NCBI RefSeq assembly: GCF_000428045.1
Contig: NZ_ATZE01000003.1
Location: 219,046-265,346 of the forward strand
Source of the DNA: Sedimenticola selenatireducens DSM 17993
GTDB taxonomy: Bacteria > Pseudomonadota > Gammaproteobacteria > Chromatiales > Chromatiaceae
DNA: 46,301 nt
Direction: 5' to 3'
Part shown: positions 3,521 to 21,340 of the stretch, in pieces
Layout: every line of letters starts with the position of its first letter
Position numbering within the stretch: the stretch's first letter is position 1
Notes under the pieces: model-generated
Told to the model about the DNA's origin: nothing
Seen by the model: only the letters and a program-made list of their open reading frames with translations
Database searches by the model: none
Position numbers and translations under genes: made by a program

Positions 3521-3538
3521 TGAATGACTATTCACTCA
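3521..3538. promoter_or_regulatory. TetR-type operator 1 (TGAATGA CTAT TCACTCA)
   Basis: Seven-base arms separated by four bases, with one mismatch from the perfect TGAATGA/TCATTCA dyad. It lies on the side nearer the SDR gene at 2634-3392. It matches the known binding consensus of Bacillus subtilis FadR (TGAATGA-MTAN-TCATTCA) when read on the minus strand, where the core is ATAG. Confidence 0.65.
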
Positions 3539-3701
3539 TAAAAAATAAATGTCAAGCCACGTCGCTTCTCCGTGTATTTGAATAGATTCTAAGTTATTAA
3601 TAATAAAAGGTGTTTTTCGTCGCCTGCGGAGCGAAATTCCGTGCCGTCCAGGGATAATGCGGGCTGATTCCTGCGCATATTTTATGCTTGACCTTTTTGA
3701 T

Positions 3702-3719
3702 TGAATGAATGATCATTCA
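3702..3719. promoter_or_regulatory. TetR-type operator 2 (TGAATGA ATGA TCATTCA)
   Basis: Perfect seven-base arms with a four-base centre. It overlaps the suggested -10 element of the promoter for the SDR/crotonase operon that starts at 3796. Its centre is 29 bases from operator 3, close to three helical turns, so two dimers could bind the same DNA face. Confidence 0.75.
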
Positions 3720-3730
3720 GTTAACATTAT

Positions 3731-3748
3731 TAAATGATCGTTCATTCA
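3731..3748. promoter_or_regulatory. TetR-type operator 3 (TAAATGA TCGT TCATTCA)
   Basis: Same dyad with one mismatch in the left arm. It lies 47 bases upstream of the SDR start codon at 3796, probably in or just after the transcription start region. Confidence 0.7.
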
Positions 3749-3795
3749 TAATGAATGTGCAACCCGAAACCGCTCAATACCCAAAGGAAATTATT

Positions 3796-4542
3796 ATGCA
3801 TATAGACGGAAAAACCGCTGTAGTAACCGGCGCTGCCTCTGGAATTGGTTTTGCCACTGCACAGGCCCTCGCTAAAGCCGGCGCCCATGTATTTCTGGGA
3901 GACATCAATGAGGATGACGGGCTGACGGCCGCAGAGAAAATTCGTGCCGACGGGGGTAGCGCTGAATTTCTGCGTATGGATGTAACCGACCCCGATTCCA
4001 TCGAGTCGTTCAAGCAAGCCGCATACAAAAGTAAAGGCCATGTGGACATTGTTGTAAATGTTGCCGGATGGGGAAAAATCGAACCGTTCGTGAAAAACAC
4101 GCCCGATTTCTGGCGCAAGGTGGTAGACCTTAATTTTATGGCACCGATTATGGTGACCCGCGCGTTTCTGGATCAGATGATCGAGCGCAATGAGGGAAAA
4201 ATCGTGGTGATCGCCAGTGATGCGGGCCGTGTCGGCAGCATGGGGGAAACCGTGTACTCCGGGGCCAAGGGCGGGGCGATTGCTTTTGTTAAGTCGCTGG
4301 CGCGGGAAGTTGCACGCCACAATATCAATGTGAATGCCGTTTGTCCCGGTCCCACCGACACGCCCCTGTTACGTGCGGTACCGGAAAAGCATCAGGAGGC
4401 GTTTGTCCGCGCTACGCCGATGCGCCGCCTGGGTAAGCCTTCGGAACTGGCTGATGCCGTGCTGTTTTTCTCCAGTGACCGCGCCTCATTCGTTACCGGA
4501 CAGGTATTGAGTGTCAGTGGCGGACTGACCATGGCCGACTGA
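3796..4542 (+). CDS. BadH-like SDR (2-hydroxycyclohexanecarboxyl-CoA dehydrogenase type)
   Basis: A 248-residue short-chain dehydrogenase. TGAASGIG near residue 11 binds NAD(H), and catalytic Ser lies in VIASDAGRVGS with Tyr and Lys in YSGAKGG. The segments VAGWGKIEPF, ASDAGRVGS, VNAVCPGPTDTPLL and GQVLSVSGGLTM closely follow what I remember of BadH, which oxidises 2-hydroxycyclohexane-1-carboxyl-CoA to the 2-keto ester in Rhodopseudomonas palustris; the same subfamily also occurs in 2-aminobenzoyl-CoA clusters. ATG 3796 has AAAGGAA seven bases upstream; the longer frame from 3709 would read through operator 3 and is rejected. It is the first gene of a codirectional run ending at 11027 and is preceded by operators 2 and 3. 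Predicted role: NAD-dependent oxidation of a ring or chain 3-hydroxyacyl-CoA. Confidence 0.85.
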   Translation: MHIDGKTAVVTGAASGIGFATAQALAKAGAHVFLGDINEDDGLTAAEKIRADGGSAEFLRMDVTDPDSIESFKQAAYKSKGHVDIVVNVAGWGKIEPFVKNTPDFWRKVVDLNFMAPIMVTRAFLDQMIERNEGKIVVIASDAGRVGSMGETVYSGAKGGAIAFVKSLAREVARHNINVNAVCPGPTDTPLLRAVPEKHQEAFVRATPMRRLGKPSELADAVLFFSSDRASFVTGQVLSVSGGLTMAD

Positions 4543-4604
4543 ACTGTCGTGTAATCAACTCAATTGTCGATGCAAGAATAGCTTGTTAATCCGAGGAACA
4601 CATT

Positions 4605-5423
4605 ATGTACAAAGTAAAAGCCGCAAACTGGAAACCGGATCACTTTGGTTGGGAAGTGAAGGATGGTGTTGCCACCGTGACCATGGATATACCCGAACGG
4701 AAAAACCCGTTTACCTTTGAAAGTTATGCGGAGCTTCGCGATACCTTCCATAAGCTGCAGTATGCCGAGGACGTGCGGGCCGTGGTGATCACTGGTGCCG
4801 GTGGCAATTTCTGCTCCGGGGGCGATGTGCACGATATCATCGGACCGCTGACCCGCATGGGCATGGATGACCTGCTGCGCTTCACCCGCATGACCGGCGA
4901 TCTGGTCAAGGAGATGCGCCAGTGCCCGCAACCCATTATCGCCGCGATCGATGGCATCTGTGTGGGTGCCGGCGCCATTCTGGCGATGGCCAGTGATTTC
5001 CGTTATGCAACACCACGGGTCAAAACCGCTTTCCTGTTTGTAAAGGTAGGACTGGCAGGTTGCGACATGGGGGCGTGCGCCATCCTGCCGCGCATTATTG
5101 GTCATGGCCGCGCCTCGGAGCTGCTTTATACCGGGCGGGTCATGAGCACCGAAGAGGGTGCCAACTGGGGATTCTTTAACGAAGTGGTGTCGCAGGAAGA
5201 GCTGATGGAGAAGGCTTACAGTATGGCCCGGGTGATCACCGAAGGACCCTACTTCGCCCACACGGTCACCAAGAAATGCCTGCACCAGGAGTGGAGCCAG
5301 AGCATCGAGCAGGCACTGGAGACCGAGGCTGAGGCCCAGGCCATCTGCATGGCAACCAAGGACTTTGAGCGTGCCTACAACGCCTTTGTCAACAAGCAGA
5401 CGCCCCAGTTCGAGGGCAACTGA
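4605..5423 (+). CDS. Crotonase-family protein with a GLAGCDMG active-site loop (enoyl-CoA hydratase/isomerase/hydrolase)
   Basis: A 272-residue crotonase-fold protein. The oxyanion-hole segments are [10 protein letters not shown] (about residues 67-76) and [19 protein letters not shown]. The active-site loop differs from standard hydratases: the usual PE...GAGGTQRL is replaced by [19 protein letters not shown], so the first catalytic Glu is lost and an Asp appears, while the second Glu is kept in SELLYTG. An Asp in this loop is catalytic in dienoyl-CoA isomerase and, at a slightly different spacing, in the ring-cleaving BadI and ring-forming MenB, so the reaction may be isomerisation or C-C cleavage instead of hydration. 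I recognise this subtype from 2-aminobenzoyl-CoA/salicylyl-CoA type clusters. GAGGAA precedes the ATG. It lies between the BadH-like SDR and the acyl-CoA dehydrogenase, in one operon. Confidence 0.85.
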
Positions 5424-5481: not shown

Positions 5482-6666
5482 ATGGTTGAAAAGGTACATT
5501 ATCGTGCTTCGGGCTTTGCGCAGTGGCCGTTTTTTGAAGATCGGCACCGCAACCTGGTTGCGGAACTGGACTCCTTTGCCAGGGAACAGCTGGTCGCAGT
5601 TGCCGAGGACGCTGGAGAGGATGACGACGCGCAGGATATCGCCTGCCGGGTGATCGTCCGCCGGTTGGGTGAAGCCGGGTTTCTGAACTGTAGCGCGGTG
5701 GTTGATGCCCAAGGCCAGTTTGATGTGCGCAGCCTATGCCTGAGCCGCGATACACTGGCCTGTCATGCGCCGCTGGCCGACTTCGCCTTTGCCATGCAGG
5801 GGTTGGGTACCGGGCCCATATCTATCGCCGGTAGCGCACAGCAGCGCGCCGACTATCTACCGCCGGTGATGCGGGGAGAGCGCCTGGCCGCCTTTGCACT
5901 GTCCGAGCCGGATGCCGGCAGCGATGTTTCGGCGATTTCCACCACCGCCCGTCGCGAGGGTGCCGATTTTGTTCTTGATGGTATTAAAACCTGGATATCG
6001 AACGGCGGCATTGCCGATCACTATGTAGTCTTTGCCCGCACGGGCGAGGCCCCCGGAGCCAGAGGTCTTTCCGCCTTTATTGTCGACGCCGATAATCCCG
6101 GGTTTAGCGTGGTAGAGCGGATCCGTGTGATCGCTCCCCATCCACTCGCCACCATCAAGCTGGAAAACTGCCGGGTGCCGGCTTCGGCCATGGTGGGCAA
6201 TCCGGGCGAAGGCTTTAAGGTGGCGATGGGCACACTGGATGTATTTCGTACCACCGTAGGGGCTGCCGCACTCGGCTTTGCCCGGCGGGGATTGAGCGAG
6301 GCTCTGGCCCGGGTTCAGGAGCGTTCCGTATTTGGCAAGCTGCTGTCCGAGTTTCAGCTCACCCAGGCGAAGATTGCCGAGATGGCGACAGAGATCGATG
6401 CGGCCTCCCTATTGGTATATCGCTCGGCATGGAGCAAAGACACCTTTGGCGGGCGCAATACCGCTCCCTCCTCGATGGCCAAGATGTACGCCACCGAGAA
6501 AGCACAAGAGGTGATAGACAAGGCGGTACAACTGTTTGGCGGTTTGGGTGTGGTGCACGGCGTGCCTGTCGAATCACTCTACCGGGACATCAGGGCATTG
6601 CGCATTTATGAAGGTACAACCGAGGTCCAGAAGCTGGTCATCGCGAATGCCGTACTTTCGGGATAA
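5482..6666 (+). CDS. Acyl-CoA dehydrogenase family protein
   Basis: A 394-residue flavoprotein of the acyl-CoA dehydrogenase family, somewhat longer than the 380-residue norm at its N-terminus. The FAD/substrate signature [17 protein letters not shown], the segment [10 protein letters not shown] and the C-terminal [10 protein letters not shown] are all present; the Glu of YEGT is the usual catalytic base of short-chain members. It would introduce the alpha-beta double bond into the CoA ester and pass electrons to ETF, which is not encoded here. ATG 5482 has AGGAGA eight bases upstream; the frame upstream overlaps the previous gene and is not family-like. The N-terminal [15 protein letters not shown] segment marks a subfamily found near aryl-CoA pathways. 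Same operon as its neighbours, 58 bases after the crotonase. Confidence 0.9.
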
Positions 6667-6744: not shown

Positions 6745-7503
6745 ATGATTTCACTAGAGATAGACGGTACCGTCGCCACCGCCACGCTGTCCCGTGCGCC
6801 GGTAAATGCGATCAGCGACGAATGGATCGAGCGACTTGAGTGGGTTCTGAATGAAACCAGTGCAAATCCGGACCTGTCTGCCTTGCGCATCCGTAGCGCC
6901 GAGAAGGTATTCTGTGCCGGCGCTGATCTGGCAGTGATGCGCAGTCGTTTTACCAGTGAGGCAGGTCGGCTGCAAATGGTGGAGTTGGCTGCAAAAATGC
7001 AGCGCGTATTCGCCCAGCTTGAGGCGATGCCTATGGTGACAGTGGCACAAATCGAAGGTGCAGCGCTGGGCGGAGGCTTTGAACTGGCGCTTGCCTGCGA
7101 TCTCAGGGTGGTCGCTGATACGGCCAGGATTGGCCTGCCGGAGGCGGGCCTTGGTCTGTTGCCGGGAGCGGGTGGTACCCAGCGCCTGACTCGATTGTGC
7201 GGTGATGCGGTTGCGCGTCGTATGATTCTTTCGGCCGAAGTGCTAAATGGTGTTCAGGCGGAAAAGCTGGGCGTGGTGCATTGGGTGGCAGACAAGGCGC
7301 AATTGCCCGGTCTGGTTGATGAGTTGCTGGTTAGAATAGGCAGAATTCCCCGGGACGCCATCACGGAATGCAAGCGCTGCATCCAGGCGGCGCTGGACCC
7401 CGACCAGGACGGTTACGCGATCGAACTTGAAGGCACGCAACGTCTGTATGAAAACCCGATTTCCCAGGAGATCGTCCGCCGGTTTTTAGATAAGGCGGGT
7501 TAA
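6745..7503 (+). CDS. Enoyl-CoA hydratase/isomerase (second crotonase)
   Basis: A 252-residue crotonase with FCAGADLAVM and GAALGGGFELALACDLRV forming the oxyanion hole, and LPEAGLGLLPGAGGTQRL carrying the first catalytic Glu. The second catalytic Glu of classical hydratases (AMEMVLTG in the mammalian enzyme) is replaced, reading VARRMILSAE, which is common in isomerases and divergent hydratases. The start ATG has GAGAGG six bases upstream. It follows the acyl-CoA dehydrogenase by 78 bases in the same orientation. Likely role: hydration or double-bond shift of an enoyl-CoA intermediate; which of the three crotonases does which step cannot be told from sequence. Confidence 0.87.
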   Translation: MISLEIDGTVATATLSRAPVNAISDEWIERLEWVLNETSANPDLSALRIRSAEKVFCAGADLAVMRSRFTSEAGRLQMVELAAKMQRVFAQLEAMPMVTVAQIEGAALGGGFELALACDLRVVADTARIGLPEAGLGLLPGAGGTQRLTRLCGDAVARRMILSAEVLNGVQAEKLGVVHWVADKAQLPGLVDELLVRIGRIPRDAITECKRCIQAALDPDQDGYAIELEGTQRLYENPISQEIVRRFLDKAG

Positions 7504-7644
7504 TCTGATCCGGCAGCGGCAGCCCGCTCTTGCCGCCAGCAACCCAGCGCAGCAGAAAGTTTTGCCCTTCTTGTGGTGGTCGTTCCGGGGATGATCGTTG
7601 CCGGCTCGACGCGGGATAAATTTGCGAAAATAACGGTGCTGAAC

Positions 7645-8415
7645 ATGAACGAAGTTATTCTCAAAAAGCACACGACCGAAGTGGCCATCATCCAAATTAA
7701 CCGTCCTGAGTGCAAGAACGCTCTCAATATGGCGGTACGTGAACGGTTGGCTGCCTGCTTTTCCTTGTTGAGTGATGATGATCAGGTGCGCGCCATTGTT
7801 GTCACGGGTAATCAGGAGGCGTTTGCCGCCGGCGCCGATCTCGTCGACCTGGCGCAACGCAGTGCCCTCGATATGATGCTGCGCAAGACGCACCTGATGT
7901 GGCAGGCGATAGCCGACTGTCCCAAGCCGGTGATTGCCGCCGTTGCCGGCTACGCCTTCGGCGGCGGCTGTGAACTGGCCATGCATGCCGACATCATCAT
8001 TGCCGGTGAGAACGCCCGTTTTTCCCAGCCTGAAATCAAGGTGGGAATTATGCCCGGGGCGGGCGGAACCCAGCGATTGCTTCGAGCGGTCGGTAAATAC
8101 AACGCAATGCGGCTGCTCCTGACGGGTGATGCAATCTCCGCCGGTGAAGCGCGGGAGATGGGGCTGGTATCGATGGTCGTGCCTGATGAGCAGGTGCTGG
8201 ACAGCGCGTTGGCCATGGCCCGGCGTATCGCCAGTATGCCTCCGCTTGCCGTTGCACAGATTAAAGAGGTGGTATTGGCGGGCCAGGATGCGTCGCTGGA
8301 TCAGGCGCTCGCGCTGGAGCGCAAGGCGTTCCAGCTACTATTTGCCACCAACGATCAAAAAGAGGGTATGCAGGCCTTTATCGAGAAGCGTATGCCGGCT
8401 TACCAGGGGAATTAA
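7645..8415 (+). CDS. paaF: PaaF-type enoyl-CoA hydratase (2,3-dehydroadipyl-CoA hydratase-like)
   Basis: A 256-residue crotonase. NRPECKNALN, FAAGADLVDLA, GYAFGGGCELAMHADIIIAGE and FSQPEIKVGIMPGAGGTQRL follow the PaaF pattern closely as I remember it, including the length and the RxPxYQGN-type C-terminus. In the phenylacetate pathway PaaF hydrates 2,3-dehydroadipyl-CoA, so here it suggests that a dicarboxylyl-CoA is formed after ring opening; a monocarboxylic enoyl-CoA substrate is also possible. The ATG at 7645 is preferred over 7573 because the protein aligns from there, although its Shine-Dalgarno is weak. It ends three bases before the next gene, implying translational coupling. The paa symbol is assigned by family resemblance only. 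Confidence 0.82.
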   Translation: MNEVILKKHTTEVAIIQINRPECKNALNMAVRERLAACFSLLSDDDQVRAIVVTGNQEAFAAGADLVDLAQRSALDMMLRKTHLMWQAIADCPKPVIAAVAGYAFGGGCELAMHADIIIAGENARFSQPEIKVGIMPGAGGTQRLLRAVGKYNAMRLLLTGDAISAGEAREMGLVSMVVPDEQVLDSALAMARRIASMPPLAVAQIKEVVLAGQDASLDQALALERKAFQLLFATNDQKEGMQAFIEKRMPAYQGN

Positions 8416-8418: not shown

Positions 8419-9996
8419 ATGTCGCAACAACAGCCAAATTGCACCAAGGCTTGGGTGCCTGGGGAGACCCTGGGGGTCGTGGGCGCCGGAGTCATGGGCC
8501 GTGGTATTGTGCAGGTGGCCGCGCAGGCGGGTATTGATGTGGTCCTGTACGACGCCAACAGCGAGGCGGTGAGTGTCGCCATAGAGGAAATTGCCCACAT
8601 ATTTGACCGCCTGCAAAACAAGAAAAAGCTCACGCCGGAACAGGTGGTACAGGCACTTTCACGTATTTCATGCGCAAGTGATCTCGACGCGTTCAGCTCT
8701 TGTGCAGTTGTCATTGAGGCTATTGTCGAACGCCTCGATGCCAAGCAGGGACTGCTGGGTTCGCTGGAGCGGGTGGTCGCGGACGACTGCATCCTGGCCA
8801 CCAACACCTCTTCCCTGTCGGTAACTTCAATTGCCGCCGGTTGCACGCGCCCGGAGCGGGTTGGCGGCTTCCACTGTTTCAATCCGGTTCCGTTGATGAA
8901 ACTGGTCGAGGTAATTGAAGGCGTGCAAACCGAGCCCCGGGTGACCGATAAACTGACAGCGTTGGCGCAACAGGTGGGACATACGGCGGTACGGGCGCAG
9001 GACACCCCGGGATTCGTGGTCAATCACGCGGGACGTGGAATGATCACCGAGTCCCTGCGGCTTCATAGTGAGGGCGTTGCCGATTTCCGTGCAGTCGACG
9101 ATATTTTGCGCGATGGGGTGGGTTTTCGTTTGGGGCCGTTTGAATTGATGGATCTTACCGGCCTGGATGTCTCACAACCGGTAATGGAGTCCATCTATCA
9201 GCAGTATTATCAGGAGCCGCGCTACCGTCCCACACCGCTGGCGCTTCAGCGGTTGCAGGCCGGCCTCCTCGGACGCAAGAGCGGCAAGGGTTTTTACACC
9301 TACGAACAGAATCAGAAGTTGCTTGCGCCACGGGATGAACCCCTGCCGGTGCCCTTGCCGACCATCTGGGTCAGCCCGGGGAATGAGCAGACTTTCAAGC
9401 AGCTGAGCGGCTTAGTGGAAAAGCTGGGTGGAACGGTCGATCGGGGGGCAAAACCGGCGGAAGATTCCCTCTGCCTGTTGGCTCCATTGGGGCAGGATGC
9501 GACCACAGCGGCACTGGAGTTGGGGGTTGATCCCGCTCGTGCTATCGCAATAGACGTGATACCGGATCTCGACAGGCTTCGCACGCTGATGGCGACACCG
9601 GCTACCGGGGAAGCGATCAAGCGGGCGGCATATTGCCTGTTTTCAAGTGATAAGGTACCGGTGGTTATGATCCGCGAAAGCGCCGGCTTCGTCGCACAAC
9701 GGGTATTGGCGACCATTATCAATATCGGATGTGATATGGCGCAGCAACGCATAGCATCACCGGCCGATATTGACCGGGCGGTAACCCTGGGGTTGGGCTA
9801 TCCGCATGGCCCACTTGCCTGGGGCGATATCCTGGGCGCGAATAAGGTGGTTAAAATCCTGACCAACATGCATCAGGCGTCGCAGGATCCCCGATATCGG
9901 GTCAGCCCCTGGTTGTCCCGGCGGGCGCGACTCGGATTATCGTTATTGTCAGACGAACATATTTTTTCAGAAGGCTGGACGGGAGCGACGGTGTGA
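8419..9996 (+). CDS. paaH: 3-hydroxyacyl-CoA dehydrogenase, PaaH/PaaC type
   Basis: A 525-residue NAD-dependent dehydrogenase. The N-terminal Rossmann fold carries GAGVMG (22-27); TNTSSLSVTSIAA and FHCFNPVPLMKLVEV hold the catalytic Ser and His (His152). A first C-terminal domain runs to GRKSGKGFYTYE (about 290), then a linker and a second C-terminal-like domain containing SAGFVAQRVLA and GLGYPHGPLAW. This two-repeat build and the length fit PaaH/PaaC, which oxidise 3-hydroxyadipyl-CoA to 3-oxoadipyl-CoA. AGGGGA precedes the ATG and the gene starts three bases after the PaaF-like gene. No thiolase (PaaJ/FadA) follows, so the last cleavage step must be encoded elsewhere. Confidence 0.88.
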   Translation: MSQQQPNCTKAWVPGETLGVVGAGVMGRGIVQVAAQAGIDVVLYDANSEAVSVAIEEIAHIFDRLQNKKKLTPEQVVQALSRISCASDLDAFSSCAVVIEAIVERLDAKQGLLGSLERVVADDCILATNTSSLSVTSIAAGCTRPERVGGFHCFNPVPLMKLVEVIEGVQTEPRVTDKLTALAQQVGHTAVRAQDTPGFVVNHAGRGMITESLRLHSEGVADFRAVDDILRDGVGFRLGPFELMDLTGLDVSQPVMESIYQQYYQEPRYRPTPLALQRLQAGLLGRKSGKGFYTYEQNQKLLAPRDEPLPVPLPTIWVSPGNEQTFKQLSGLVEKLGGTVDRGAKPAEDSLCLLAPLGQDATTAALELGVDPARAIAIDVIPDLDRLRTLMATPATGEAIKRAAYCLFSSDKVPVVMIRESAGFVAQRVLATIINIGCDMAQQRIASPADIDRAVTLGLGYPHGPLAWGDILGANKVVKILTNMHQASQDPRYRVSPWLSRRARLGLSLLSDEHIFSEGWTGATV

Positions 9997-12893: not shown

Positions 12894-12911
12894 TGAATGA
12901 TTACTCATTCA
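12894..12911. promoter_or_regulatory. TetR-type operator 4 (TGAATGA TTAC TCATTCA)
   Basis: Perfect seven-base arms. It overlaps the probable -10 region of the promoter reading toward the acyl-CoA synthetase. Confidence 0.75.
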
Positions 12912-12930
12912 TATCACCGATGTCAATAAC

Positions 12931-12948
12931 TGAATGAACGATCATTCA
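12931..12948. promoter_or_regulatory. TetR-type operator 5 (TGAATGA ACGA TCATTCA)
   Basis: Perfect seven-base arms, 37 bases from operator 4 centre to centre, and just upstream of the TTGACA -35 element of the synthetase promoter. Confidence 0.75.
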
Positions 12949-14082: not shown

Positions 14083-14419
14083 GATATTTTTGCACTCGAA
14101 CGTTGATAAGGCGTCTTGATTATGCGATAGAGACTCGCATCGAACAAACCTTTTCTTCAGGCCGGCCGGTGCCATATGACTTCGGTCAGGCATTTCTCAT
14201 ATTCTGCCCGGTATGTCGTCGCGACACCACCCGATAAATTGACTATTCATTCATTAGGCGGTATAAAACCAGGGCTTGGGACGCCTGTCAATCATGCCTT
14301 AACCCGCCACGAATCCATGTGCCGGTATGAATCACTACTGGCGCAACACAAGATAAAAGTGCGGCCGCACAAAATGCGTCTTTTTGCCTTTCACAATTTC
14401 ACCGACCGGGACATTGAAC
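14083..14419. promoter_or_regulatory. Divergent promoter region of the TetR and paaY-like genes
   Basis: About 340 bases without a gene. The only structure I can name is the operator at 14236-14253. A TATAAA-like element (GTATAAAAC, 14261-14269) lies just downstream of it on the plus strand. Confidence 0.45.
14236..14253. promoter_or_regulatory. TetR-type operator 6 (AAATTGA CTAT TCATTCA, weaker)
   Basis: The right arm TCATTCA is perfect and the left arm keeps four of seven positions. Read on the minus strand the centre is ATAG, as in the Bacillus FadR consensus. A weak site in front of the regulator's own gene is typical of autoregulation at high repressor level. Confidence 0.5.
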
Positions 14420-15049
14420 GTGGCACGAGTTTATGAAATTGCCGGAATGATTCCGGTTATCGATCGCAGCGCTTTCGTACATCCGGATGCCGTAATAATT
14501 GGTGATGTTGTTATTGGTCCGGGTTGTTATATCGGTCCCTGCGCCTGTATCAGAGGTGATTTTGGACGCATCGAGATCGGAGCGGGTGTCAATATACAGG
14601 ACAATTGCGTGGTTCACTCATTCCCCGAAGTTACGGTGCGGATCGCGGATGACAGTCATATCGGGCATGGCGCGGTTATTCATGCCTGCGAAATCAAAAG
14701 GAACGCCCTGATCGGTATGAACTCGGTGATTATGGATAGGGCGGTGATCGGTGAAAATGCCTTTGTGGCCGCCATGGCGTTTGTCAAAGCGGGCATGCAG
14801 GTGGAGCCCAACACGCTGGTGGCGGGCGTGCCGGCCAGGGTGGTACGGACCCTTTCGGCACAGGAGCTGAAGTGGAAAATACAAGGCACCGACAGCTACA
14901 AGCAGTTGGCGGTAAGGTCCATCAACTCGCTGCGCCCTGTCGAACCACTGGAAGTGGAGGAGCCAGGCCGAAAGGCTACCGATGAGCTGTCCGCAGCCCC
15001 CATGCCTCTGACGGATATAAAAAACCGTACGCCAACCAAATCGGACTGA
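14420..15049 (+). CDS. paaY: PaaY-type hexapeptide-repeat thioesterase (gamma-carbonic-anhydrase fold)
   Basis: A 209-residue left-handed beta-helix protein with hexapeptide repeats from about residue 15 to 150. RGDFGRIEIGAGVNIQDNC, the His in CVVHSF and the pair in HIGHGAVIHAC match the metal-binding set of gamma-carbonic anhydrases; IGMNSVIMD, AFVKAG and the tail QELKWKIQGT...VEPL...EPGRK are characteristic of PaaY/CaiE. PaaY is a thioesterase that removes dead-end CoA thioesters in phenylacetate degradation. The GTG at 14420 gives ARVYEIAGMIPVI, parallel to the PaaY N-terminus, with GGGA upstream. The C-terminal 25 residues are extra and Pro/Thr-rich. It is divergent from the TetR gene and shares its operator region, so it is a likely rescue enzyme for this pathway. 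Confidence 0.87.
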   Translation: MARVYEIAGMIPVIDRSAFVHPDAVIIGDVVIGPGCYIGPCACIRGDFGRIEIGAGVNIQDNCVVHSFPEVTVRIADDSHIGHGAVIHACEIKRNALIGMNSVIMDRAVIGENAFVAAMAFVKAGMQVEPNTLVAGVPARVVRTLSAQELKWKIQGTDSYKQLAVRSINSLRPVEPLEVEEPGRKATDELSAAPMPLTDIKNRTPTKSD

Positions 15050-15171: not shown

Positions 15172-17655
15172 ATGTCCCAGAAAAATCTCAATAAGCTGTT
15201 TCGTCCCCGCTCACTGGCTGTTATTGGTGCCAGCAACCGGGAGGGTACCGTTGGCAATCTGGTCATGAGGAATCTGCTTAAGGCCGGTTTTTCGGGTCCG
15301 ATTATGCCGGTAAATCCCAAATACCAGGCGGTTTACGGGGTCTACAGCTATGCCGATGTCGCAAGCCTGCCCATCGTCCCGGACCTCGCGGTGATCTGCA
15401 CACCACCTCAACCGGTTCCCGAACTGATCGCCGAGTTGGGCGCATGGGGGACCCGTGCCGCAATAGTGATGACCAAGGGTCTGAATCGGGAGAAAACAGC
15501 TGCCGGCGTTGATTTGCAGCAGGCAATGCTGGATGCGGCGGCTCCCTACGAATTAAGGCTGCTGGGCCAGAATTCACTGGGTGTATTGGTTCCCGCCGCC
15601 AGGCTGAATGCGAGTTTTTCACACCTGAGCGCCTTGCCTGGCAAGATAGCCTTTGTGTCGCAGTCAGGTGCCATGTGTATGGCGGTACTGGACTGGGCAT
15701 GCGCCCGTAATATCGGCTTTTCCCACTTTGTATCGCTGGGAAGCAGTGTCGATGTCGATTTTGCCGATGTGATTGATTACCTGGGGAGCGATCCGAAGAC
15801 CAGTTCGATTCTGCTGTATATGGAATCCGTTCACGATGGGCGACGTTTCATGTCGGCGGCGCGTGCCGCCGCGCGTAACAAGCCGGTTCTGGTCATCAAA
15901 TCCGGACGCACTCCGGAGGGCGCTTCTGTGGTTGCGTCCCATTCCGGGGTAATGACCGGATCTGACGAGGTCTATGACGCAGCTATTCGTCGGGCCGGCA
16001 TGCTCCGGGTGGACGATATCGACGAGCTTTTTGCCGGTGTCGAATCACTGGCCAAGGCTGGCCGAATGCGAGGGGATAATCTGGCTATTCTCTGCAACGG
16101 CAGCAGTCTGGGGGTCATGGCAGTTGATGCTTTGAGCGCCAGTGGCGGTCATCTGGCAGATCTGTCCGAGGCAACGCTTGAACAGCTGGATGCGATACTT
16201 CCCTCTCCCTGGTTTCGCAATAATCCGGTTGATATTTTTTCCAACGCCACGCGTGAACGCTACGAACGGGCCTATAAGGTGCTTGCCCAGGCGCCGGAAG
16301 TGGACATTATTCTGGTGATCCACGCTCCGGTGGCCACCTCGGACAGCATGGCGGCAGCCGAGGGCATTGTCAGTGCTTTCAAGGAAACGCCCTGCAGCCT
16401 GCTGACCTGCTGGGTTGGTGAGGCGACGGTTACGCAGCCGCGCGAGTTATTTTCCCGTGAGGGCATCGCCACCTACAATACGCCGACCACCGCCGTCCAG
16501 GCATTTATGCACGGCATCCGTTACCGGCAGAATCAGCGATTGCTGATGGAAACGCCGGAATCACTCACAAGTGCCTTTAAACCTGATGTCGAGGCGGCAA
16601 GGCAATTTGTTCGACAGGCCCTGGATGAGCAGGGTGGAACACAGCGGGATCATGACGCCAGTAGGCTGTTGGCCGCTTATGGGATCCGCTCTATGATTTC
16701 CGGTGGTGGACCCGAAGTCGGCACCTACGATCTGCTGATCAGCGTCAAGCACGATCCGGTTTTTGGCCCGGTCATTACGTTTGGTCAGGGTGGACATGGT
16801 GCGCAGCGGACTGGCGATAGCGCGGTTTCCCTGCCTCCGCTGAACATGAGCCTCGCGCGAGATCTGATCTATCGAACCCGAATCGCACAACTTCTCAGCC
16901 ACTCGTCCACACAGCCGGTCGATATCATAAACGCTATTTGTCAGACATTGATCCAGGTGGCTCAGCTGATTATCGATATTCCGGAATTGTTGGAATTGGA
17001 GATCAATCCGCTGGCAGTTAACGGCCATGAGGTGGTGGCACGAAAAGCCCGGGTGATGCTGAAAACAGTAGATGCTGATTTTGCCCCGCGGCTGGCCATC
17101 CGTCCCTATCCCAAACATCTGGAAGAGACCTTTAAATTGACGGATGGCCGGGAGCTGTTGCTGCGCCCCATTCGACCGGAGGATGAGCCGAACCACTATA
17201 AATTGCTGAAAAAATCCACGGAGGAGGACCTGCGCTACCGGTTTTTTGGCGAGCTGCAAAAACTGCGTCATTCACAGATGGCTCGCCTGACCCAGATCGA
17301 TTACGATCGCGAGATGGCTTTTGTGGCGGTCTATGAGAAGGACGGCGAAAGTGAGACATTGGGTGTTGTCCGGACCGTTACCGATCCCAATAATGAATCT
17401 GCGGAGTTTGCCATCCTGCTGGGCACGGGTCTGAAAGGAACGGGCTTGAGCATCAAGCTGATGAGCAAGATGATCGACTATTGCCGTTCCCGGGGCACTG
17501 CTGTCATGACGGGACAGATTCTCGCCGACAACTACCGCATGCTGGGATTGGCCAGGAAGATTGGATTTACCCTGACACCGGTTCCCGGAGAAGGGATTGT
17601 CGAGGTGTGTTTCCCGCTGAACCCGTCTTCCGAAAAACTGGTAAGTGATGTCTGA
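15172..17655 (+). CDS. PatZ-like acyl-CoA synthetase (NDP-forming)/GNAT acetyltransferase with shortened ATP-grasp domain
   Basis: An 827-residue fusion. Residues 10-135 form a CoA-binding domain (RPRSLAVIGASNREGTVG), 150-470 the succinyl-CoA-ligase-like domains with ASHSG (His257, the phospho-His position of ADP-forming acetyl-CoA synthetases), and 655-820 a GNAT domain (RPIRPEDEPNHY, LKGTGLSIKLM, ADNYRMLGLARKIGF). Between AAYGI (about 505) and YDLLISVKHDPVFGPVITFG (519-538) most of the first ATP-grasp lobe, normally including the VALKI...HKSD...G segment, is absent; the protein is about 60 residues shorter than E. coli PatZ. It thus probably cannot make acyl-CoA and is more likely a lysine acetyltransferase, which in other bacteria switches off AMP-forming acyl-CoA synthetases. 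It follows the paaY-like gene by 122 bases. Confidence 0.85.
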   Translation: MSQKNLNKLFRPRSLAVIGASNREGTVGNLVMRNLLKAGFSGPIMPVNPKYQAVYGVYSYADVASLPIVPDLAVICTPPQPVPELIAELGAWGTRAAIVMTKGLNREKTAAGVDLQQAMLDAAAPYELRLLGQNSLGVLVPAARLNASFSHLSALPGKIAFVSQSGAMCMAVLDWACARNIGFSHFVSLGSSVDVDFADVIDYLGSDPKTSSILLYMESVHDGRRFMSAARAAARNKPVLVIKSGRTPEGASVVASHSGVMTGSDEVYDAAIRRAGMLRVDDIDELFAGVESLAKAGRMRGDNLAILCNGSSLGVMAVDALSASGGHLADLSEATLEQLDAILPSPWFRNNPVDIFSNATRERYERAYKVLAQAPEVDIILVIHAPVATSDSMAAAEGIVSAFKETPCSLLTCWVGEATVTQPRELFSREGIATYNTPTTAVQAFMHGIRYRQNQRLLMETPESLTSAFKPDVEAARQFVRQALDEQGGTQRDHDASRLLAAYGIRSMISGGGPEVGTYDLLISVKHDPVFGPVITFGQGGHGAQRTGDSAVSLPPLNMSLARDLIYRTRIAQLLSHSSTQPVDIINAICQTLIQVAQLIIDIPELLELEINPLAVNGHEVVARKARVMLKTVDADFAPRLAIRPYPKHLEETFKLTDGRELLLRPIRPEDEPNHYKLLKKSTEEDLRYRFFGELQKLRHSQMARLTQIDYDREMAFVAVYEKDGESETLGVVRTVTDPNNESAEFAILLGTGLKGTGLSIKLMSKMIDYCRSRGTAVMTGQILADNYRMLGLARKIGFTLTPVPGEGIVEVCFPLNPSSEKLVSDV

Positions 17656-17748: not shown

Positions 17749-18261
17749 TCAACCGTCACCCCCATCGGATTCGATATCGGTCATGGGGACAATCAATACC
17801 GGTCGTTCACTGCGAAACAGCACCTGGTGGGCGGTTGAGCCCAGGACGATCTGACTGAATGCTGAGTGGGTTCGCGAACCCATCACGATCAGATCTGCAT
17901 TGACATCTTTGGCGACCGCCAGAATACGGTCGACCGGCTTGCCCTCTTCTATACGACATTCCGGTCGGCCCTGGGAAAGTCCGTAGTCAGAAGATAACTC
18001 TTCCGCCGCAAATTTGTCGATCCGGCCGTTGATCACTTCGCAGATTTTAGCCACGCTTTTTGAACGCATTACGTCTAGCTGGTCGTCACTCACATAGCTG
18101 TTCAATATCATTTCCGCTGTCCGGCCCGGTGGCTCGATCACATGCAGGAAAATCAGCCGTGCCTGGTTGGTTTGTGCCAGACCTACGGCCATTTTAAATC
18201 CCTTGCGCATGTTTGGACCAAAATCGGAGGCGTAAACAATACAATTGATTTTTTTCAGCAT
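17749..18261 (-). CDS. Universal stress protein (UspA family), last gene of the TRAP operon
   Basis: A 170-residue Usp-domain protein: KINCIVYASDFGPNMRKGFKMAVGLA at the N-terminus and VNADLIVMGSRTHSAFSQIVLGSTAHQVL near the end. The ATP-binding pattern G-x2-G-x9-G-S is nearly complete, but the second Gly is Thr. AAGGAGA lies seven bases before the ATG. It follows the TRAP large permease gene by 55 bases on the same strand. A Usp gene at the end of a TRAP operon recalls TeaD of Halomonas, an ATP-binding protein that lowers activity of the TeaABC ectoine transporter, so a similar control of this importer is plausible but inferred. Confidence 0.87.
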   Translation of the reverse strand: MLKKINCIVYASDFGPNMRKGFKMAVGLAQTNQARLIFLHVIEPPGRTAEMILNSYVSDDQLDVMRSKSVAKICEVINGRIDKFAAEELSSDYGLSQGRPECRIEEGKPVDRILAVAKDVNADLIVMGSRTHSAFSQIVLGSTAHQVLFRSERPVLIVPMTDIESDGGDG

Positions 18262-18316: not shown

Positions 18317-19603
18317 TCAAATCAGTGCCAGTGCCAGCGCAGGGAACAGGATAAGCAGCGCAAGGCGTACCAGGTCCGATAGAACAAAGGGTAATACGCC
18401 TTTGAAAATCTGGCCGATGGGTATCTCAAGGGCCACGCTTTTGATTACGAATACATTCATCCCCACGGGTGGGGTAATCAGTCCCAGTTCCACCGTAATT
18501 ACCGCCACGATACCGAACCAGATTGGGTCAAATCCGGCGGTGACGATTAGTGGAAACACCACCGGTACGGTCAATAACAGCATCGCCAGGCTGTCCATTA
18601 CACATCCCAGCAGGATGAACAGCAAGAGAACGGCAGCCAGTACAGCGTAGGGAGGCAGGCCCATGCTGCCTACCAGCTCTGCCAGGTAGAAGGAGATCCG
18701 TGATACCGAAAGGAAATAGCCGAAGATTTCGGCACCGATAATCATGAAGAAAATCATGGCCGAAAGCTTCAGGGTTTCATCCACTGCCTCGATAAAACCG
18801 GTCAGTCGCATGCCGCGTAGCAATGCGATAACCATCGATACGAAGGCGCCGATCGCCGCAGCCTCGGTGGGGGTGAAAATTCCCAGGTAGATGCCGCCAA
18901 TAATAATTGCGAAGACCAGAAAAAATGGGCCGAAACCAACCAGGCCGGCAATCTTCTGTCGCCAGGTGGTGGGATCTCCGGGCCTGGCCAGAGCGGGGTT
19001 GCGGTGCACCAGGATTGCGATTGTGGCGCAATAGAGAAGGAGCCCCAACAGGCCGGGAATTACCCCCGCCATAAACATTTTACCCACGGACTGTTCGGTG
19101 ATCAGGGCATAAAGAAGCAGGGCGATGCTGGGAGGGATCATGATCCCCAGGGTGCCGCCGGCCGCCAGGGTTCCGGCCGCCAGCGAGTTGGCATAGCCGT
19201 GTTTCTTCATCTCCGGGAGTGCTACCCTGGACATGCTGGCCGCGGTGGCCACGGAGGAGCCGGAGATGGCGGAGAATATGCCACAGGCACTGACCGACGC
19301 CAGTGCCATACCGCCACGCCAACCGCCAAACAGCATTCGGGCCGCATGGAACAGTTCCGTGGACATGCGCGCCTTGGAAGCAAATACCCCCATTAGAATG
19401 AACATGGGGATTGGGCTGAAACCGTAGTTGCTCAGGGTTTCATAGGGTCCGGATTCCAGGATGGACAGGGCAGGATCAAAGGCGACGATCCAGGTAAAGC
19501 CGATCAGTCCGGTCGCCGCCATGGCCAGGGCGATAGGGCAGCGCAGGGCAATAAATACCAGCATACCCGCCATACAGAGCAATCCAATTACGGGCGGACT
19601 CAT
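18317..19603 (-). CDS. dctM: TRAP transporter large permease (DctM)
   Basis: A 428-residue integral membrane protein with about twelve membrane segments. RCPIALAMAATGLIGF, ASKARMSTELFHAARMLFGG and ISGSSVATAASMSRVALPEM are typical DctM sequences, as are GGTLGIMIPPSIALLLYA and the C-terminal TPPVGMNVFVIK. It forms the sodium-driven channel with the small subunit. AGGAGAG precedes the ATG, and its start overlaps the stop of the small permease gene by four bases (ATGA), so translation is coupled. Substrate specificity lies in the binding protein encoded upstream. Confidence 0.94.
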   Translation of the reverse strand: MSPPVIGLLCMAGMLVFIALRCPIALAMAATGLIGFTWIVAFDPALSILESGPYETLSNYGFSPIPMFILMGVFASKARMSTELFHAARMLFGGWRGGMALASVSACGIFSAISGSSVATAASMSRVALPEMKKHGYANSLAAGTLAAGGTLGIMIPPSIALLLYALITEQSVGKMFMAGVIPGLLGLLLYCATIAILVHRNPALARPGDPTTWRQKIAGLVGFGPFFLVFAIIIGGIYLGIFTPTEAAAIGAFVSMVIALLRGMRLTGFIEAVDETLKLSAMIFFMIIGAEIFGYFLSVSRISFYLAELVGSMGLPPYAVLAAVLLLFILLGCVMDSLAMLLLTVPVVFPLIVTAGFDPIWFGIVAVITVELGLITPPVGMNVFVIKSVALEIPIGQIFKGVLPFVLSDLVRLALLILFPALALALI

Positions 19604-20166
19604 CGGTGCTCTCCTTCTGCTGTCTGGTTATGTTCAGCCTTCGGGGAGGTGGGCTGGTCGGGTGGTGCCTTGCGGGTTGTCAGCCCGCGGATCCCAACCA
19701 ACAGGCTGCGCAATCCCAGAATGAAGGTGGCCGCAACCACCAGCAGATAGATGTCAGACAGCGGCAGCAACAGATCCTGAGAGGTTTCCATGGTCTCCAG
19801 TGCCGCCGTGTAGGCATGATAAAAGCGCCAGCTCATGGCCAGCCACAAGGCCGCAAAAGCCAGGGTGTAGAGACCATTCACCAGTCGCTCGGTGGACTTC
19901 GACATGTTCTGGGTAAACAGGTCCACAACCACTTGGCCCTTGTCGACACAATGTGGGAGTGAAAACAGGATACAGAGCAGAAGGCCAAAACTGACCAGCT
20001 CGATACCGCCGAGAAAAGTCAGATCCCAATGCCCGTCACTGACATCAAAGAGTGCACGGGTGGCCACATCAACCACCACTATCGCCATCATCGAGATGAG
20101 CAGCAAGCCGCTCATCCGATGCATCCATAGCGCCACCGAGTCGACTGCTTTATAAAGCATTCGCAT
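19600..20166 (-). CDS. dctQ: TRAP transporter small permease (DctQ)
   Basis: A 188-residue membrane protein with four hydrophobic segments (about 15-35, 50-75, 92-115, 135-158) and a charged C-terminal tail. VDVATRALFDVSDGHW and GIELVSFGLLLCILFSLPHCV fit the DctQ family. It pairs with the large permease, whose start overlaps its stop, and lies 11 bases after the binding-protein gene. AAGGG precedes the ATG. Confidence 0.9.
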   Translation of the reverse strand: MRMLYKAVDSVALWMHRMSGLLLISMMAIVVVDVATRALFDVSDGHWDLTFLGGIELVSFGLLLCILFSLPHCVDKGQVVVDLFTQNMSKSTERLVNGLYTLAFAALWLAMSWRFYHAYTAALETMETSQDLLLPLSDIYLLVVAATFILGLRSLLVGIRGLTTRKAPPDQPTSPKAEHNQTAEGEHR

Positions 20167-20177
20167 GGCGGACCCTT

Positions 20178-21191
20178 CTAGTTACGGCAGTTTTTTGACA
20201 GCGCTGGAATCTTTTCATAGATGCTGCGGGCAGTCGCGCCATTCTGGGACAGGTAGTTCTCGGTAGCCTGCTCCAGCACCCCTTTCCAGGCTGGATTCTC
20301 CACTCCGCCCTCAATGGTGGTGATGGTATGCCCCAGCTCTTTAGCCTGTGCCAGACCCACTTTATCCTGTTCATCCATCAGCTGGCCGGTTTTGACGGCC
20401 CAGGCGAGCCCGGAATTTTTATCGATTACCTGGCGCAGGTCTGCAGGCATGCTCTCATAGGTGCCCTTGTTCATGGTGACGACAAAGGCCAGTGTATAAA
20501 GGTTGATGTCCGTGTGATTGTCTGCCAATTCATTCAGGCGGAAGGATTTGACTCCTTCCCAGGGCAGGGTTGCGCCGTCGATCACGCCACGGGACATGGA
20601 CTGGTAGATCTGCGGTGCCGGCATTCCCACCGGCTGACTACCCAACCCGGTCAACAGATCGGCCACCACAGCAGTGGGGCGGCGAATACGCAGGCCTTTC
20701 AAATCTTCCGGGGTTTTTACCAGCGTGCCCTTGGTGTGAATCATGCCAGGGCCGTGGGTAAACACAAACAAGGGATGGGTCTCTGAGTACTCATCGGCGA
20801 TATCGCCCTGGTCCAGCAGGGTCTGGAATACACAGGAGCCCAGCGCGCCGCTTTCAGCAATACCGGGAAGTTCGATGACCTGGCTCAGGGGGAACCGGTT
20901 GGCGGTATAGCCCTGGACAGTGGCGCCCACGTCGGCAATGCTGCTGACTACGGCATCATAAATTTTAGGTGCCTTGGCCAGCGTCTGAGAGGGATACATC
21001 TCGACCTTGATGCGGCCGTTGGAATCTTTTTCAACGGCATCGCCCCAGGCCTGGAACTGTTGGGACATGCCGGCCTGCGGAGGCCAGAAGTGAGCAAAGC
21101 GCAGATTGAATTCAGCTGCTGCCTGAGCGTTTTGTATCGGTGCGACCAAGCCGATAGTTGCTGCTATAAGTACAGAAGTAATGCGTTTCAT
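20178..21191 (-). CDS. dctP: TRAP transporter substrate-binding protein (DctP)
   Basis: A 337-residue periplasmic binding protein. A signal peptide of about 25 residues ends at NAQAAAEF; the mature protein shows FAHFWPP, SQTLAKAPKIYDAV, the TRAP signature with the conserved Arg in LKGLRIRRPTAVVADLL, and DGATLPWEGVKSF. The Arg normally holds the carboxylate of the ligand, so the substrate is probably an organic acid, consistent with the acyl-CoA synthetase in the same predicted regulon. It is the first gene of the operon dctP-dctQ-dctM-usp, and two TetR-type operators lie 86-150 bases upstream. The exact acid is unknown. Confidence 0.93.
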   Translation of the reverse strand: MKRITSVLIAATIGLVAPIQNAQAAAEFNLRFAHFWPPQAGMSQQFQAWGDAVEKDSNGRIKVEMYPSQTLAKAPKIYDAVVSSIADVGATVQGYTANRFPLSQVIELPGIAESGALGSCVFQTLLDQGDIADEYSETHPLFVFTHGPGMIHTKGTLVKTPEDLKGLRIRRPTAVVADLLTGLGSQPVGMPAPQIYQSMSRGVIDGATLPWEGVKSFRLNELADNHTDINLYTLAFVVTMNKGTYESMPADLRQVIDKNSGLAWAVKTGQLMDEQDKVGLAQAKELGHTITTIEGGVENPAWKGVLEQATENYLSQNGATARSIYEKIPALSKNCRN

Positions 21192-21276
21192 AAATTCTCC
21201 TCATGTATTTTTGATTTGATTTACCCGCACAATATTCAGGTTGAGACAGCTTCCTGGATCGAGGTATTACAGCAAA

Positions 21277-21294
21277 TGAATGAATAGCCATTCA
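21277..21294. promoter_or_regulatory. TetR-type operator 7 (TGAATGA ATAG CCATTCA)
   Basis: One mismatch from the perfect dyad and a core, ATAG, that fits the MTAN core of the Bacillus FadR consensus. It lies about 86 bases upstream of the dctP start. Confidence 0.7.
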
Positions 21295-21322
21295 CTTTCA
21301 TGTGGCAAGGTATCACAGAAGT

Positions 21323-21340
21323 TGACTGAATAGCTATTCA
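21323..21340. promoter_or_regulatory. TetR-type operator 8 (TGACTGA ATAG CTATTCA)
   Basis: Three mismatches in the arms but the same ATAG core; it also contains the perfect 14-base palindrome TGAATAGCTATTCA (21327-21340). Centre-to-centre distance to operator 7 is 46 bases. Confidence 0.55.

What the first reader, a model, noticed from the sequence alone, without database searches (positions are those of the whole stretch)
3521..21340. A TetR regulon marked by eight TGAATGA-N4-TCATTCA palindromes joins import, activation and breakdown genes
The palindrome occurs in five intergenic regions of the island: 3521-3748 (three copies), 12894-12948 (two), 14236-14253 (one weak) and 21277-21340 (two). 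Three copies are perfect and three have one mismatch. I noticed none in the intergenic regions of the housekeeping part. The same sequence is the known operator of Bacillus subtilis FadR (YsiA), a TetR-family acyl-CoA-responsive repressor, and the TetR protein at 13420-14082 has a similar recognition helix region. This ties about 14 genes on both strands into one regulatory unit and suggests the inducer is a pathway acyl-CoA.
Basis: partly seen in the sequence, partly recalled or inferred. Interest (0 to 1): 0.82.

Follow-up and report, generated by a model that had tools for sequence, protein, structure and literature searches.

The report
TetR switch for cyclic-acid breakdown genes
A single repressor protein very probably shuts off about sixteen neighbouring genes for importing, activating and breaking down an organic (probably ring-shaped) acid by binding one repeated DNA palindrome in front of them, an ordinary kind of switch that here is unusually clean and traceable across distant bacteria.

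Summary
All eight palindromes are at the stated places (3 perfect, 3 with one mismatch, 2 with three), in four intergenic regions rather than five. In the 4.59-Mb genome all six sites with at most one mismatch lie in this island; at up to three mismatches the genome is near chance. The best sigma-70-like promoters of four of six transcription units overlap an operator. The regulator link is supported by phylogenetic footprinting: TetR relatives (43-51% identical, seven loci) in gamma- and alphaproteobacterial genomes sit in syntenic acyl-CoA clusters, and the palindrome stands before the first gene in 5 of 5 clusters whose upstream DNA is held. Variants occur near plasmid relatives, one from Bacillota. 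The protein is not a FadR orthologue (59 bits against a cut-off of 200), but its fold neighbours include KstR2, AibR and FadRs, which bind acyl-CoA. A CoA-thioester inducer is likely but untested. An enoyl-CoA hydratase (4605-5423), the acyl-CoA dehydrogenase and the ligase resemble those of what I recall as the 2-aminobenzoate hybrid pathway, whose monooxygenase-reductase was not found in this genome. I read it as a local acyl-CoA-responsive TetR regulon for a cyclic carboxylic acid: a new member of a known kind.

The parts
3521..3538 (.). Operator O1, TGAATGACTATTCACTCA (18-mer, 1 mismatch; holds a perfect 14-mer TGAAT-N4-ATTCA); overlaps the -10 of the predicted promoter of 2634-3467
3702..3723 (.). 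Operator O2, perfect 18-mer at 3702-3719 plus perfect 14-mer at 3706-3719; overlaps the -10 of the predicted promoter of the 3796 operon
3731..3748 (.). Operator O3, 1 mismatch
12894..12911 (.). Operator O4, perfect 18-mer; overlaps the -10 of the predicted promoter of the CoA ligase gene
12931..12948 (.). Operator O5, perfect 18-mer at the centre of a 34-base palindrome (17-base arms, one unpaired position next to the centre, then 15 consecutive pairs)
14236..14253 (.). Operator O6, 3 mismatches, between divergent TetR and PaaY-like genes; overlaps a TTGACT-17-TATAAA promoter-like site facing 14384
21277..21294 (.). Operator O7, 1 mismatch, perfect 14-mer at 21281, upstream of the TRAP transporter genes
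21323..21340 (.). Operator O8, 3 mismatches as 18-mer, perfect 14-mer at 21327
13420..14082 (-). TetR-family repressor, 220 aa (TetR_N PF00440, TetR_C_24 PF17932); start taken at 14082 rather than 14193, from the alignment with relatives
2634..3467 (-). SDR dehydrogenase (SDR1)
3796..4542 (+). SDR dehydrogenase (SDR2), best NCBIfam hit BadH (275.8 bits, below the 431.2 cut-off); likely start at 3796, after the operators (my reading; the ORF opens at 3709)
4605..5423 (+). Enoyl-CoA hydratase of the PRK08258 type (473 bits, cut-off 330)
5482..6666 (+). Acyl-CoA dehydrogenase (start by my reading; the ORF opens at 5365)
6745..7503 (+). Enoyl-CoA hydratase/isomerase (ECH1)
7573..8415 (+). Enoyl-CoA hydratase (ECH2, PRK08138 type, 420 bits, cut-off 355)
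8419..9996 (+). 3-hydroxyacyl-CoA dehydrogenase (PRK08268 type, 683 bits, cut-off 508)
10047..11027 (+). Alpha/beta hydrolase (nearest a hormone-sensitive-lipase model, 339.7 bits, just below the cut-off of 350)
11101..12738 (-). AMP-forming acyl-CoA ligase nearest the benzoate-CoA ligase family (310.9 bits, below the cut-off of 375)
14384..15049 (+). PaaY/CaiE-like hexapeptide protein (PaaY 270.5 bits, below the cut-off of 319.6)
15172..17655 (+). ADP-forming acyl-CoA synthetase-like protein with GNAT domain; ATP-grasp_5 matches only in its second half
17749..18261 (-). Universal stress protein, possibly last gene of the TRAP unit
18317..21191 (-). TRAP transporter DctM (18317-19603), DctQ (19600-20166), DctP (20178-21191)

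Best explanation
The island is a local, autoregulated TetR regulon. Without substrate, the TetR dimer (13420-14082) sits on TGAATGA-N4-TCATTCA palindromes that cover the -10 or the start region of the promoters and represses import (TRAP), activation (CoA ligase) and breakdown (SDRs, acyl-CoA dehydrogenase, hydratases, 3-hydroxyacyl-CoA dehydrogenase) of one carboxylic acid. When the acid enters and is activated, a CoA thioester of the pathway binds the TetR ligand domain, the dimer leaves the DNA and all six units switch on together. Shown here: site positions, confinement to the island, overlap with predicted promoters, conservation of the site with the TetR across distant genomes. Inferred: binding by this TetR, repression, a CoA-thioester inducer, the operon limits, and a cyclic (alicyclic or hydroaromatic) acid as substrate. 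The site is best read as two TGA/TCA half-site pairs four bases apart (14-mer and 18-mer registers), which could take one dimer or two.
For: Six of six sites with at most one mismatch in 4.59 Mb lie in the island. Of 15 promoter-like sites in 19.2 kb, both that score 10 of 12 and one of the 13 that score 9 have their -10 inside an operator; a fourth, TTGACT-17-TATAAA, overlaps O6. TetR relatives: of 10 loci, 5 hold the cluster together with the DNA before its first gene, and 5 of 5 carry the site there (4 as 18-mers with at most one mismatch, 1 as two perfect 14-mers); 30 shuffles per locus give means of 0 for 18-mers with at most one mismatch and 0 to 0.07 for perfect 14-mers. In four of these genomes scanned whole sites with at most one mismatch number 3, 4, 1 and 2, of which 2, 1, 1 and 1 are in the cluster; in the second, two of the other three lie in another acyl-CoA cluster with a TetR paralogue (39% identical) and one stands before a molybdoenzyme/PaaK-like ligase gene pair. 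The helix S-x-G-L-I-Y-Q-Y is invariant in 11 aligned TetRs. The model (pLDDT 90.5) matches PfmR, KstR2, AibR and FadRs among the best.
Against: No binding or expression data. Two of eight sites are weak as 18-mers. No promoter reached the threshold for the TRAP unit, and the promoter found for TetR lies about ten bases upstream of O6 without overlap. Foldseek also ranks non-CoA TetRs (RutR, DarR) close by, so the fold alone does not prove a CoA ligand. 2 of 10 relatives (L032, L034) show no site, but their contigs end before the first gene; 3 of 10 (L036-L038) have other neighbours and only one perfect 14-mer each. Near four of the five plasmid relatives the site is degenerate (2-3 mismatches, or only 14-mers with one mismatch). 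Of the 10 sites counted, one lies inside an ORF (G531) and one was not examined (G534).
Confidence: 0.8

Rival explanations
1. The palindromes are operators of a TetR-family FadR-type regulator of ordinary fatty-acid beta-oxidation; the island is a fatty-acid cluster and the inducer is a long-chain acyl-CoA.
For: The TetR's second-best NCBIfam hit is Bacillus FadR (59.3 bits); FadRs are close fold neighbours; the enzymes are beta-oxidation types.
Against: Far below the FadR cut-off of 200 bits. The ligase is nearest the benzoate-CoA ligase family, and ligases in L031, L033 and L050 are nearest cyclohexanecarboxylate-CoA ligase (606, 620 and 721 bits, cut-off 792). Hydratase, dehydrogenase and ligase resemble those beside salicylyl-CoA 5-hydroxylase genes (65-70, 55-57 and 44-47%). 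Uptake by TRAP suits a small soluble acid (general knowledge).
Confidence: 0.12
2. The inducer is the free acid or another small molecule, not a CoA thioester.
For: Foldseek neighbours include TetRs with other ligands (RutR-uracil, DarR-c-di-AMP). No ligand evidence exists.
Against: FadR and AibR were solved with CoA thioesters (titles) and KstR2's ligand is recalled to be one; these rank high by sequence profile or fold. Most target genes make or use CoA thioesters.
Confidence: 0.2
3. Another DNA-binding protein of the genome, not the island's TetR, uses the palindrome.
For: The genome has 15 TetR_N hits, 14 over the family cut-off.
Against: Only this TetR is found in the genome at E <= 1e-20; the site travels with its relatives across classes, and the six sites with at most one mismatch all lie in its own island.
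Confidence: 0.04
4. Chance or a repeat element: the palindromes are AT-rich repeats without a regulatory role.
For: The 2-kb blocks that hold the sites are somewhat AT-richer than most of the window.
Against: Shuffles keeping dinucleotides give none with at most one mismatch; the same site recurs at the homologous place in unrelated genomes.
Confidence: 0.01

Closest known systems
FadR (YsiA) of Bacillus subtilis and B. halodurans
   Same: TetR fold, full-length homology (1vi0 aligned over profile positions 14-208 of 212), controls acyl-CoA genes, and by recall an operator of the same sequence
   Different: Not orthologous by NCBI cut-off (59.3 against 200 bits); target genes here are of benzoate/alicyclic type; C-terminal domain matches TetR_C_24, and whether FadR's does was not tested
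FadRSa of Sulfolobus acidocaldarius (PMC6449355; abstract and other passages, and section 9, seen)
   Same: TetR repressor with four genomic sites governing one 30-kb cluster of 23 ORFs for lipases and beta-oxidation, released by acyl-CoA; one or two dimers per operator
   Different: Archaeal, fatty acids, other gene set
KstR2 of Mycobacterium tuberculosis
   Same: Among the best sequence-profile and fold hits; recalled to bind an alicyclic CoA thioester of cholesterol ring breakdown
   Different: Steroid pathway; about 20% identity
AibR (organism Myxococcus recalled)
   Same: Fold neighbour solved with isovaleryl-CoA and operator DNA
   Different: About 20% identity; other metabolism (recalled)
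bad-ali cluster for cyclohexane carboxylate (PMC9795900; abstract and passages seen)
   Same: BadH-like SDR, acyl-CoA dehydrogenase, hydratases, CoA ligase; repressor relieved by CHC-CoA; two relatives of this cluster (L031, L033) carry AliA-like ligases
   Different: That paper gives a MarR BadR, with CAAN4TTG sites in most, for Gram-negative bad-ali clusters, and TetR-like regulators for Gram-positive ones; SDR2 and the dehydrogenase are below the BadH and AliB cut-offs
Clusters with bifunctional salicylyl-CoA 5-hydroxylase/oxidoreductase on Paracoccus, Phyllobacterium and Leisingera plasmids, which I recall as the 2-aminobenzoate (anthranilate) hybrid pathway
   Same: Same hydratase type (65-70%, three clusters), acyl-CoA dehydrogenase (55-57%, two clusters), CoA ligase (44-47%, three clusters)
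   Different: No full-length homologue of the hydroxylase/oxidoreductase found in this genome; MarR instead of TetR there; their SDRs (two clusters) are only 28-35% alike

Membership tests
TetR family of repressors | TetR_N DNA-binding domain over the curated cut-off | tested here: met
   56 bits against 24
TetR family of repressors | all-helical ligand domain fold | tested here: met
   AlphaFold2 model, pLDDT 90.5, helices only apart from isolated residues; matches TetR structures
Bacillus FadR orthologous group (NF053878) | score above NCBIfam cut-off | tested here: not met
   59.3 against 200 bits
Bacillus FadR orthologous group (NF053878) | operator TGAATGA-N4-TCATTCA | tested here: inconclusive
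   Sites present here; that FadR uses the same sequence is recalled, and I found no held paper that prints it
Bacillus FadR orthologous group (NF053878) | long-chain acyl-CoA as inducer | not testable with these tools
   needs binding assays
Acyl-CoA-responsive catabolic TetR repressors (FadR, KstR2, AibR, FadRSa) | operators overlap promoters of acyl-CoA genes | tested here: met
   predicted promoters: four of six units; TetR unit adjacent; TRAP unit none found
Acyl-CoA-responsive catabolic TetR repressors (FadR, KstR2, AibR, FadRSa) | CoA thioester bound as effector | not testable with these tools
   inferred from relatives
Acyl-CoA-responsive catabolic TetR repressors (FadR, KstR2, AibR, FadRSa) | regulator and operator conserved together | tested here: met
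   5 of 5 informative clusters of 10 loci
bad-ali cyclohexane carboxylate pathway | AliB and BadH over NCBIfam cut-offs | tested here: not met
   TIGR03207 182.6 against 575.35; TIGR03206 275.8 against 431.2
bad-ali cyclohexane carboxylate pathway | MarR-type BadR in Gram-negative clusters | tested here: not met
   regulator is TetR; rule from PMC9795900 passages
2-aminobenzoate hybrid pathway (name recalled) | bifunctional salicylyl-CoA 5-hydroxylase/oxidoreductase | tested here: not met
   only two partial hits elsewhere in the genome at E <= 1e-10, 38% and 29% over residues 392-606 and 394-726 of 761; none in the window at E <= 1e-3
2-aminobenzoate hybrid pathway (name recalled) | PRK08258-type hydratase | tested here: met
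   473 bits, cut-off 330; 65-70% to three such clusters

The most novel reading that the evidence does not exclude
The palindrome marks an undescribed, broadly spread TetR clade (gamma-, alpha- and betaproteobacteria, with a distant relative in Bacillota) that governs an undescribed oxygen-independent version of the 2-aminobenzoate/alicyclic acid pathway: late ring-opening enzymes of the anthranilate hybrid route kept, the monooxygenase-reductase replaced by a BadH-like dehydrogenase and further hydratases. Its operators are built to take one or two TetR dimers, so the motif could serve as a genome-wide tag to find such pathways, as it did here for a molybdoenzyme/PaaK-like ligase gene pair in a Rhodospirillales genome.
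Probability: 0.3. Interest if true: 0.6.

Novelty: new member of a known kind. Interest (0 to 1): 0.42.

Why it matters
It gives a ready, falsifiable regulon: one protein, eight sites, six promoters. Because the operator is rare in the five genomes scanned at one mismatch (1 to 6 copies each) and travels with the TetR, it can be used to list the genes of a still unnamed acyl-CoA pathway in other bacteria, and to say which activation and transport genes belong to it. The pathway itself (hydratase and ligase of the anthranilate-hybrid type, no monooxygenase-reductase found) is not one that I could name.

Tried and rejected
Rejected: chance; a whole-genome regulon (and for the six two-mismatch places outside the island: four covered by stop-to-stop ORFs, two of them at an apparent start codon, and two between the ORFs printed, with no acyl-CoA gene that I recognised); FadR orthology; bad-ali membership; 2-aminobenzoate pathway as such. 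Fixed spacing between paired operators as a sign of looping: centres are 29, 37 and 46 bases apart in the window, no common phase, so not pursued (own arithmetic).

Led nowhere: the first scan of genome contigs with the single TetR found no relative, so an alignment of two TetRs was used for the second. Paper searches for the operator text, for cyclohexanecarboxylate with TetR and TRAP, for 2-aminobenzoate-CoA ligase clusters and for the pJP4 TetR gave listings in which I saw no paper on this regulator; this is no proof that none exists. PMC5343134 was searched for FadP, LiuQ, TetR, HmgQ and motif passages only; I saw no FadP or LiuQ motif in them and could not compare. A weaker TetR hit (G460, 25%; L018) and a site at C200:582 in G534 were not examined.


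Full report
What was claimed. Eight TGAATGA-N4-TCATTCA palindromes between 3521 and 21340, tied to a TetR gene at 13420-14082, with an acyl-CoA as likely inducer.

The sites. One search finds 14 places with up to three mismatches in the window (1.66 expected, largest shuffle 5). They lie in four intergenic regions, not five. Two further matches (3706, 12935) overlap perfect ones; the remaining four have three mismatches and lie inside ORFs. Across the genome (4,588,530 bases) every one of the six sites with at most one mismatch is in this island. At up to three mismatches the genome has 157 places, close to the window's shuffle rate scaled up (about 165, my arithmetic); the tool's control (pattern read backwards, which keeps base but not dinucleotide content) has 35. 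Six places with exactly two mismatches lie outside the island; four are covered by stop-to-stop ORFs, two of these at an apparent start codon, and two lie between the ORFs printed; I recognised no acyl-CoA gene beside them.

The shape of the site. Two registers coexist: the 18-mer and a 14-mer, TGAAT-N4-ATTCA. Perfect 14-mers number 9 in the genome (backward control 1), 4 of them in the island (3521, 3706, 21281, 21327). Pooling 16 sites (8 from the window, 8 from relatives L029, L030, L031, L033, L035) on both strands, A at position 3 and T at position 5 are invariant (32 of 32) and A at position 4 is the weakest of positions 1 to 7. The arm therefore reads as two TGA triplets four bases apart. 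That fits two overlapping dimer sites, a mode shown for FadRSa of Sulfolobus, which binds as one dimer or as two depending on the operator (PMC6449355, section 9 read). For the present protein this is inference. The pool is partly circular, since sites were picked by likeness to the motif, and the two L035 sites were placed by me in the 18-mer register although they match the 14-mer better.

Promoters. In 19.2 kb, the generic scan lists 15 promoter-like sites; both with 10 of 12 matches and one of the 13 with 9 have their second hexamer inside an operator: 3555-3527 facing SDR1, 12926-12897 facing the CoA ligase, 3688-3716 facing SDR2. The scan as a whole is near its shuffle mean (12.1), so only the coincidence with operators is informative. 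A search of the six upstream regions without that scan's -10 rule (no shuffle control) adds TTGACT-17-TATAAA overlapping O6 and facing 14384, and TTGACA-17-TTTTAT facing TetR, whose -10 lies about ten bases before O6. Nothing reached the threshold for the TRAP unit.

The regulator. TetR_N and TetR_C_24 domains. The nearest NCBIfam models are BetI (59.7 bits, cut-off 201.3) and Bacillus FadR (59.3, cut-off 200). The genome has 15 TetR_N hits, 14 over the cut-off; only this protein is found at E <= 1e-20. In a set of 190 relatives (this genome and eight others of the genus included) no other genome had a match at E <= 1e-20. The hydratase 4605-5423 has only 32-34% matches in 3 of the 8 other genomes of the genus, besides a 35% paralogue in its own. 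On these two genes the island looks private to this species among nine genomes of the genus, two of which are only 65 and 78% complete; horizontal gain is a fair guess.

Relatives and footprint. A class-wide sample of 369 genomes gave one relative at 47% (G445) and one at 25% (G460, not followed); relatives of G445 gave 3 of 235 including itself. Five hold the cluster with the DNA before its first gene: L029 (Rhodospirillales MAG), L030, L031 and L035 (Gammaproteobacteria MAGs), L033 (Afifella MAG). All five carry the site there: L029 557 perfect; L030 1954 perfect, between the divergent ligase and SDR2 operons; L031 2662 one mismatch; L033 4230 perfect, with 7331 perfect before ECH1 and 9907 two mismatches before TetR; L035 two perfect 14-mers. 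Shuffles give means of 0 for 18-mers with at most one mismatch and 0 to 0.07 for perfect 14-mers per locus (30 shuffles each). L032 and L034 are cut before the first gene and show no site. L036, L037 and L038 have other gene neighbours and one perfect 14-mer each; in L036 and L037 it lies just past the TetR gene in a stretch alike in both, in L038 before a match to the 3-hydroxyacyl-CoA dehydrogenase.

Whole genomes of four of these contain 3, 4, 1 and 2 sites with at most one mismatch, of which 2, 1, 1 and 1 are in the cluster; the backward control has none in any of the four. Of the three others in the Rhodospirillales genome, two lie in a second acyl-CoA cluster with its own TetR paralogue (39% to the window's) and an AliA-like ligase (721 bits, cut-off 792), and one stands immediately before a molybdopterin oxidoreductase-like gene followed by a PaaK-like phenylacetate-CoA ligase gene (599.6 bits, cut-off 646.3). 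The third site of the Afifella genome lies inside an ORF; the second of G534 was not examined.

Plasmid relatives (five records, all five examined): Azoarcus KH32C, a three-mismatch site 40 to 60 bases before TetR; Variovorax pDB1 and Cupriavidus pJP4, the perfect palindrome TGAGTGA-AGCT-TCACTCA (two mismatches) before an ABC transporter gene, and a three-mismatch site at the TetR start; Sphingomonas pJE1, only 14-mers with one mismatch (one also a three-mismatch 18-mer); Priestia megaterium (30% identity), a one-mismatch 18-mer about 90 to 105 bases before the first gene of the TetR gene string.

Ligand. The sequence profile of 11 TetRs ranks KstR2 and the FadRs of B. subtilis (1vi0) and B. 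halodurans (5gp9) among seven chains at E <= 1e-15, behind 3dcf, for which the listing gives no ligand. The model is matched best by PfmR, KstR2, AibR with isovaleryl-CoA, and FadRs. RutR and DarR follow closely, so the fold does not decide the ligand. A CoA thioester is the best guess.

Pathway. SDR2 is nearest BadH, below cut-off. The ligase is nearest the benzoate-CoA ligase family, below cut-off. The hydratase 4605-5423, the acyl-CoA dehydrogenase and the ligase are 65-70, 55-57 and 44-47% identical to those beside a bifunctional salicylyl-CoA 5-hydroxylase/oxidoreductase in Paracoccus, Phyllobacterium and Leisingera plasmids (three of 66 plasmid records with a hydratase match were opened; no dehydrogenase is annotated in the Leisingera stretch). 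That these are 2-aminobenzoate hybrid clusters is recalled. No full-length homologue of that enzyme was found in this genome, and two of those clusters carry an SDR only 28-35% alike. Relatives L031 and L033 carry a cyclohexanecarboxylate-CoA ligase-like enzyme (606 and 620 bits, cut-off 792). A cyclic acid is thus the likeliest substrate; its identity is open.

Verdict. The system is a clean new member of a known kind, the acyl-CoA-responsive TetR repressor of a local catabolic cluster.

Noticed in passing
window 15172-17655 +: The ADP-forming acyl-CoA synthetase-like protein with a C-terminal GNAT domain matches only positions 108-221 of 221 of ATP-grasp_5, so it may be a Pat-like protein acetyltransferase rather than a synthetase. 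The CoA ligase 11101-12738 ends in PRTPTGKIQRFRLLE, which resembles the acetylation motif recalled for Rhodopseudomonas Pat targets such as BadA and AliA. A second, post-translational control within the regulon is possible.
   Followed up: partly
window 12923-12956: Operator O5 sits at the centre of a 34-base palindrome with 15 consecutive paired positions per arm, longer than at the other 15 sites compared there.
   Followed up: no
L049 8165 (G532:C25:261164): A perfect copy of the operator stands directly before a molybdopterin oxidoreductase-like gene followed by a PaaK-like phenylacetate-CoA ligase gene in the Rhodospirillales genome; possibly anaerobic aryl-acid oxidation under the same regulator.
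   Followed up: partly
L050 5551-18834: A second acyl-CoA cluster of that genome with a TetR paralogue (39%), an AliA-like ligase and operator copies at 7209, 12681 and a two-mismatch variant at 14613.
   Followed up: partly
L043 12001-13544 (pJP4) and L042 (pDB1): These plasmids carry a 45% relative of this TetR near tfdA or a TfdA-family gene, with the perfect palindrome TGAGTGA-AGCT-TCACTCA before an ABC transporter substrate-binding gene.
   Followed up: no
window 21626-25467 -: Three neighbouring genes that look like cyclic-di-GMP proteins just outside the island: an HD-domain protein (21626-22903) and, by reading of the translations only, an EAL-type and an HD-GYP-type protein.
   Followed up: no
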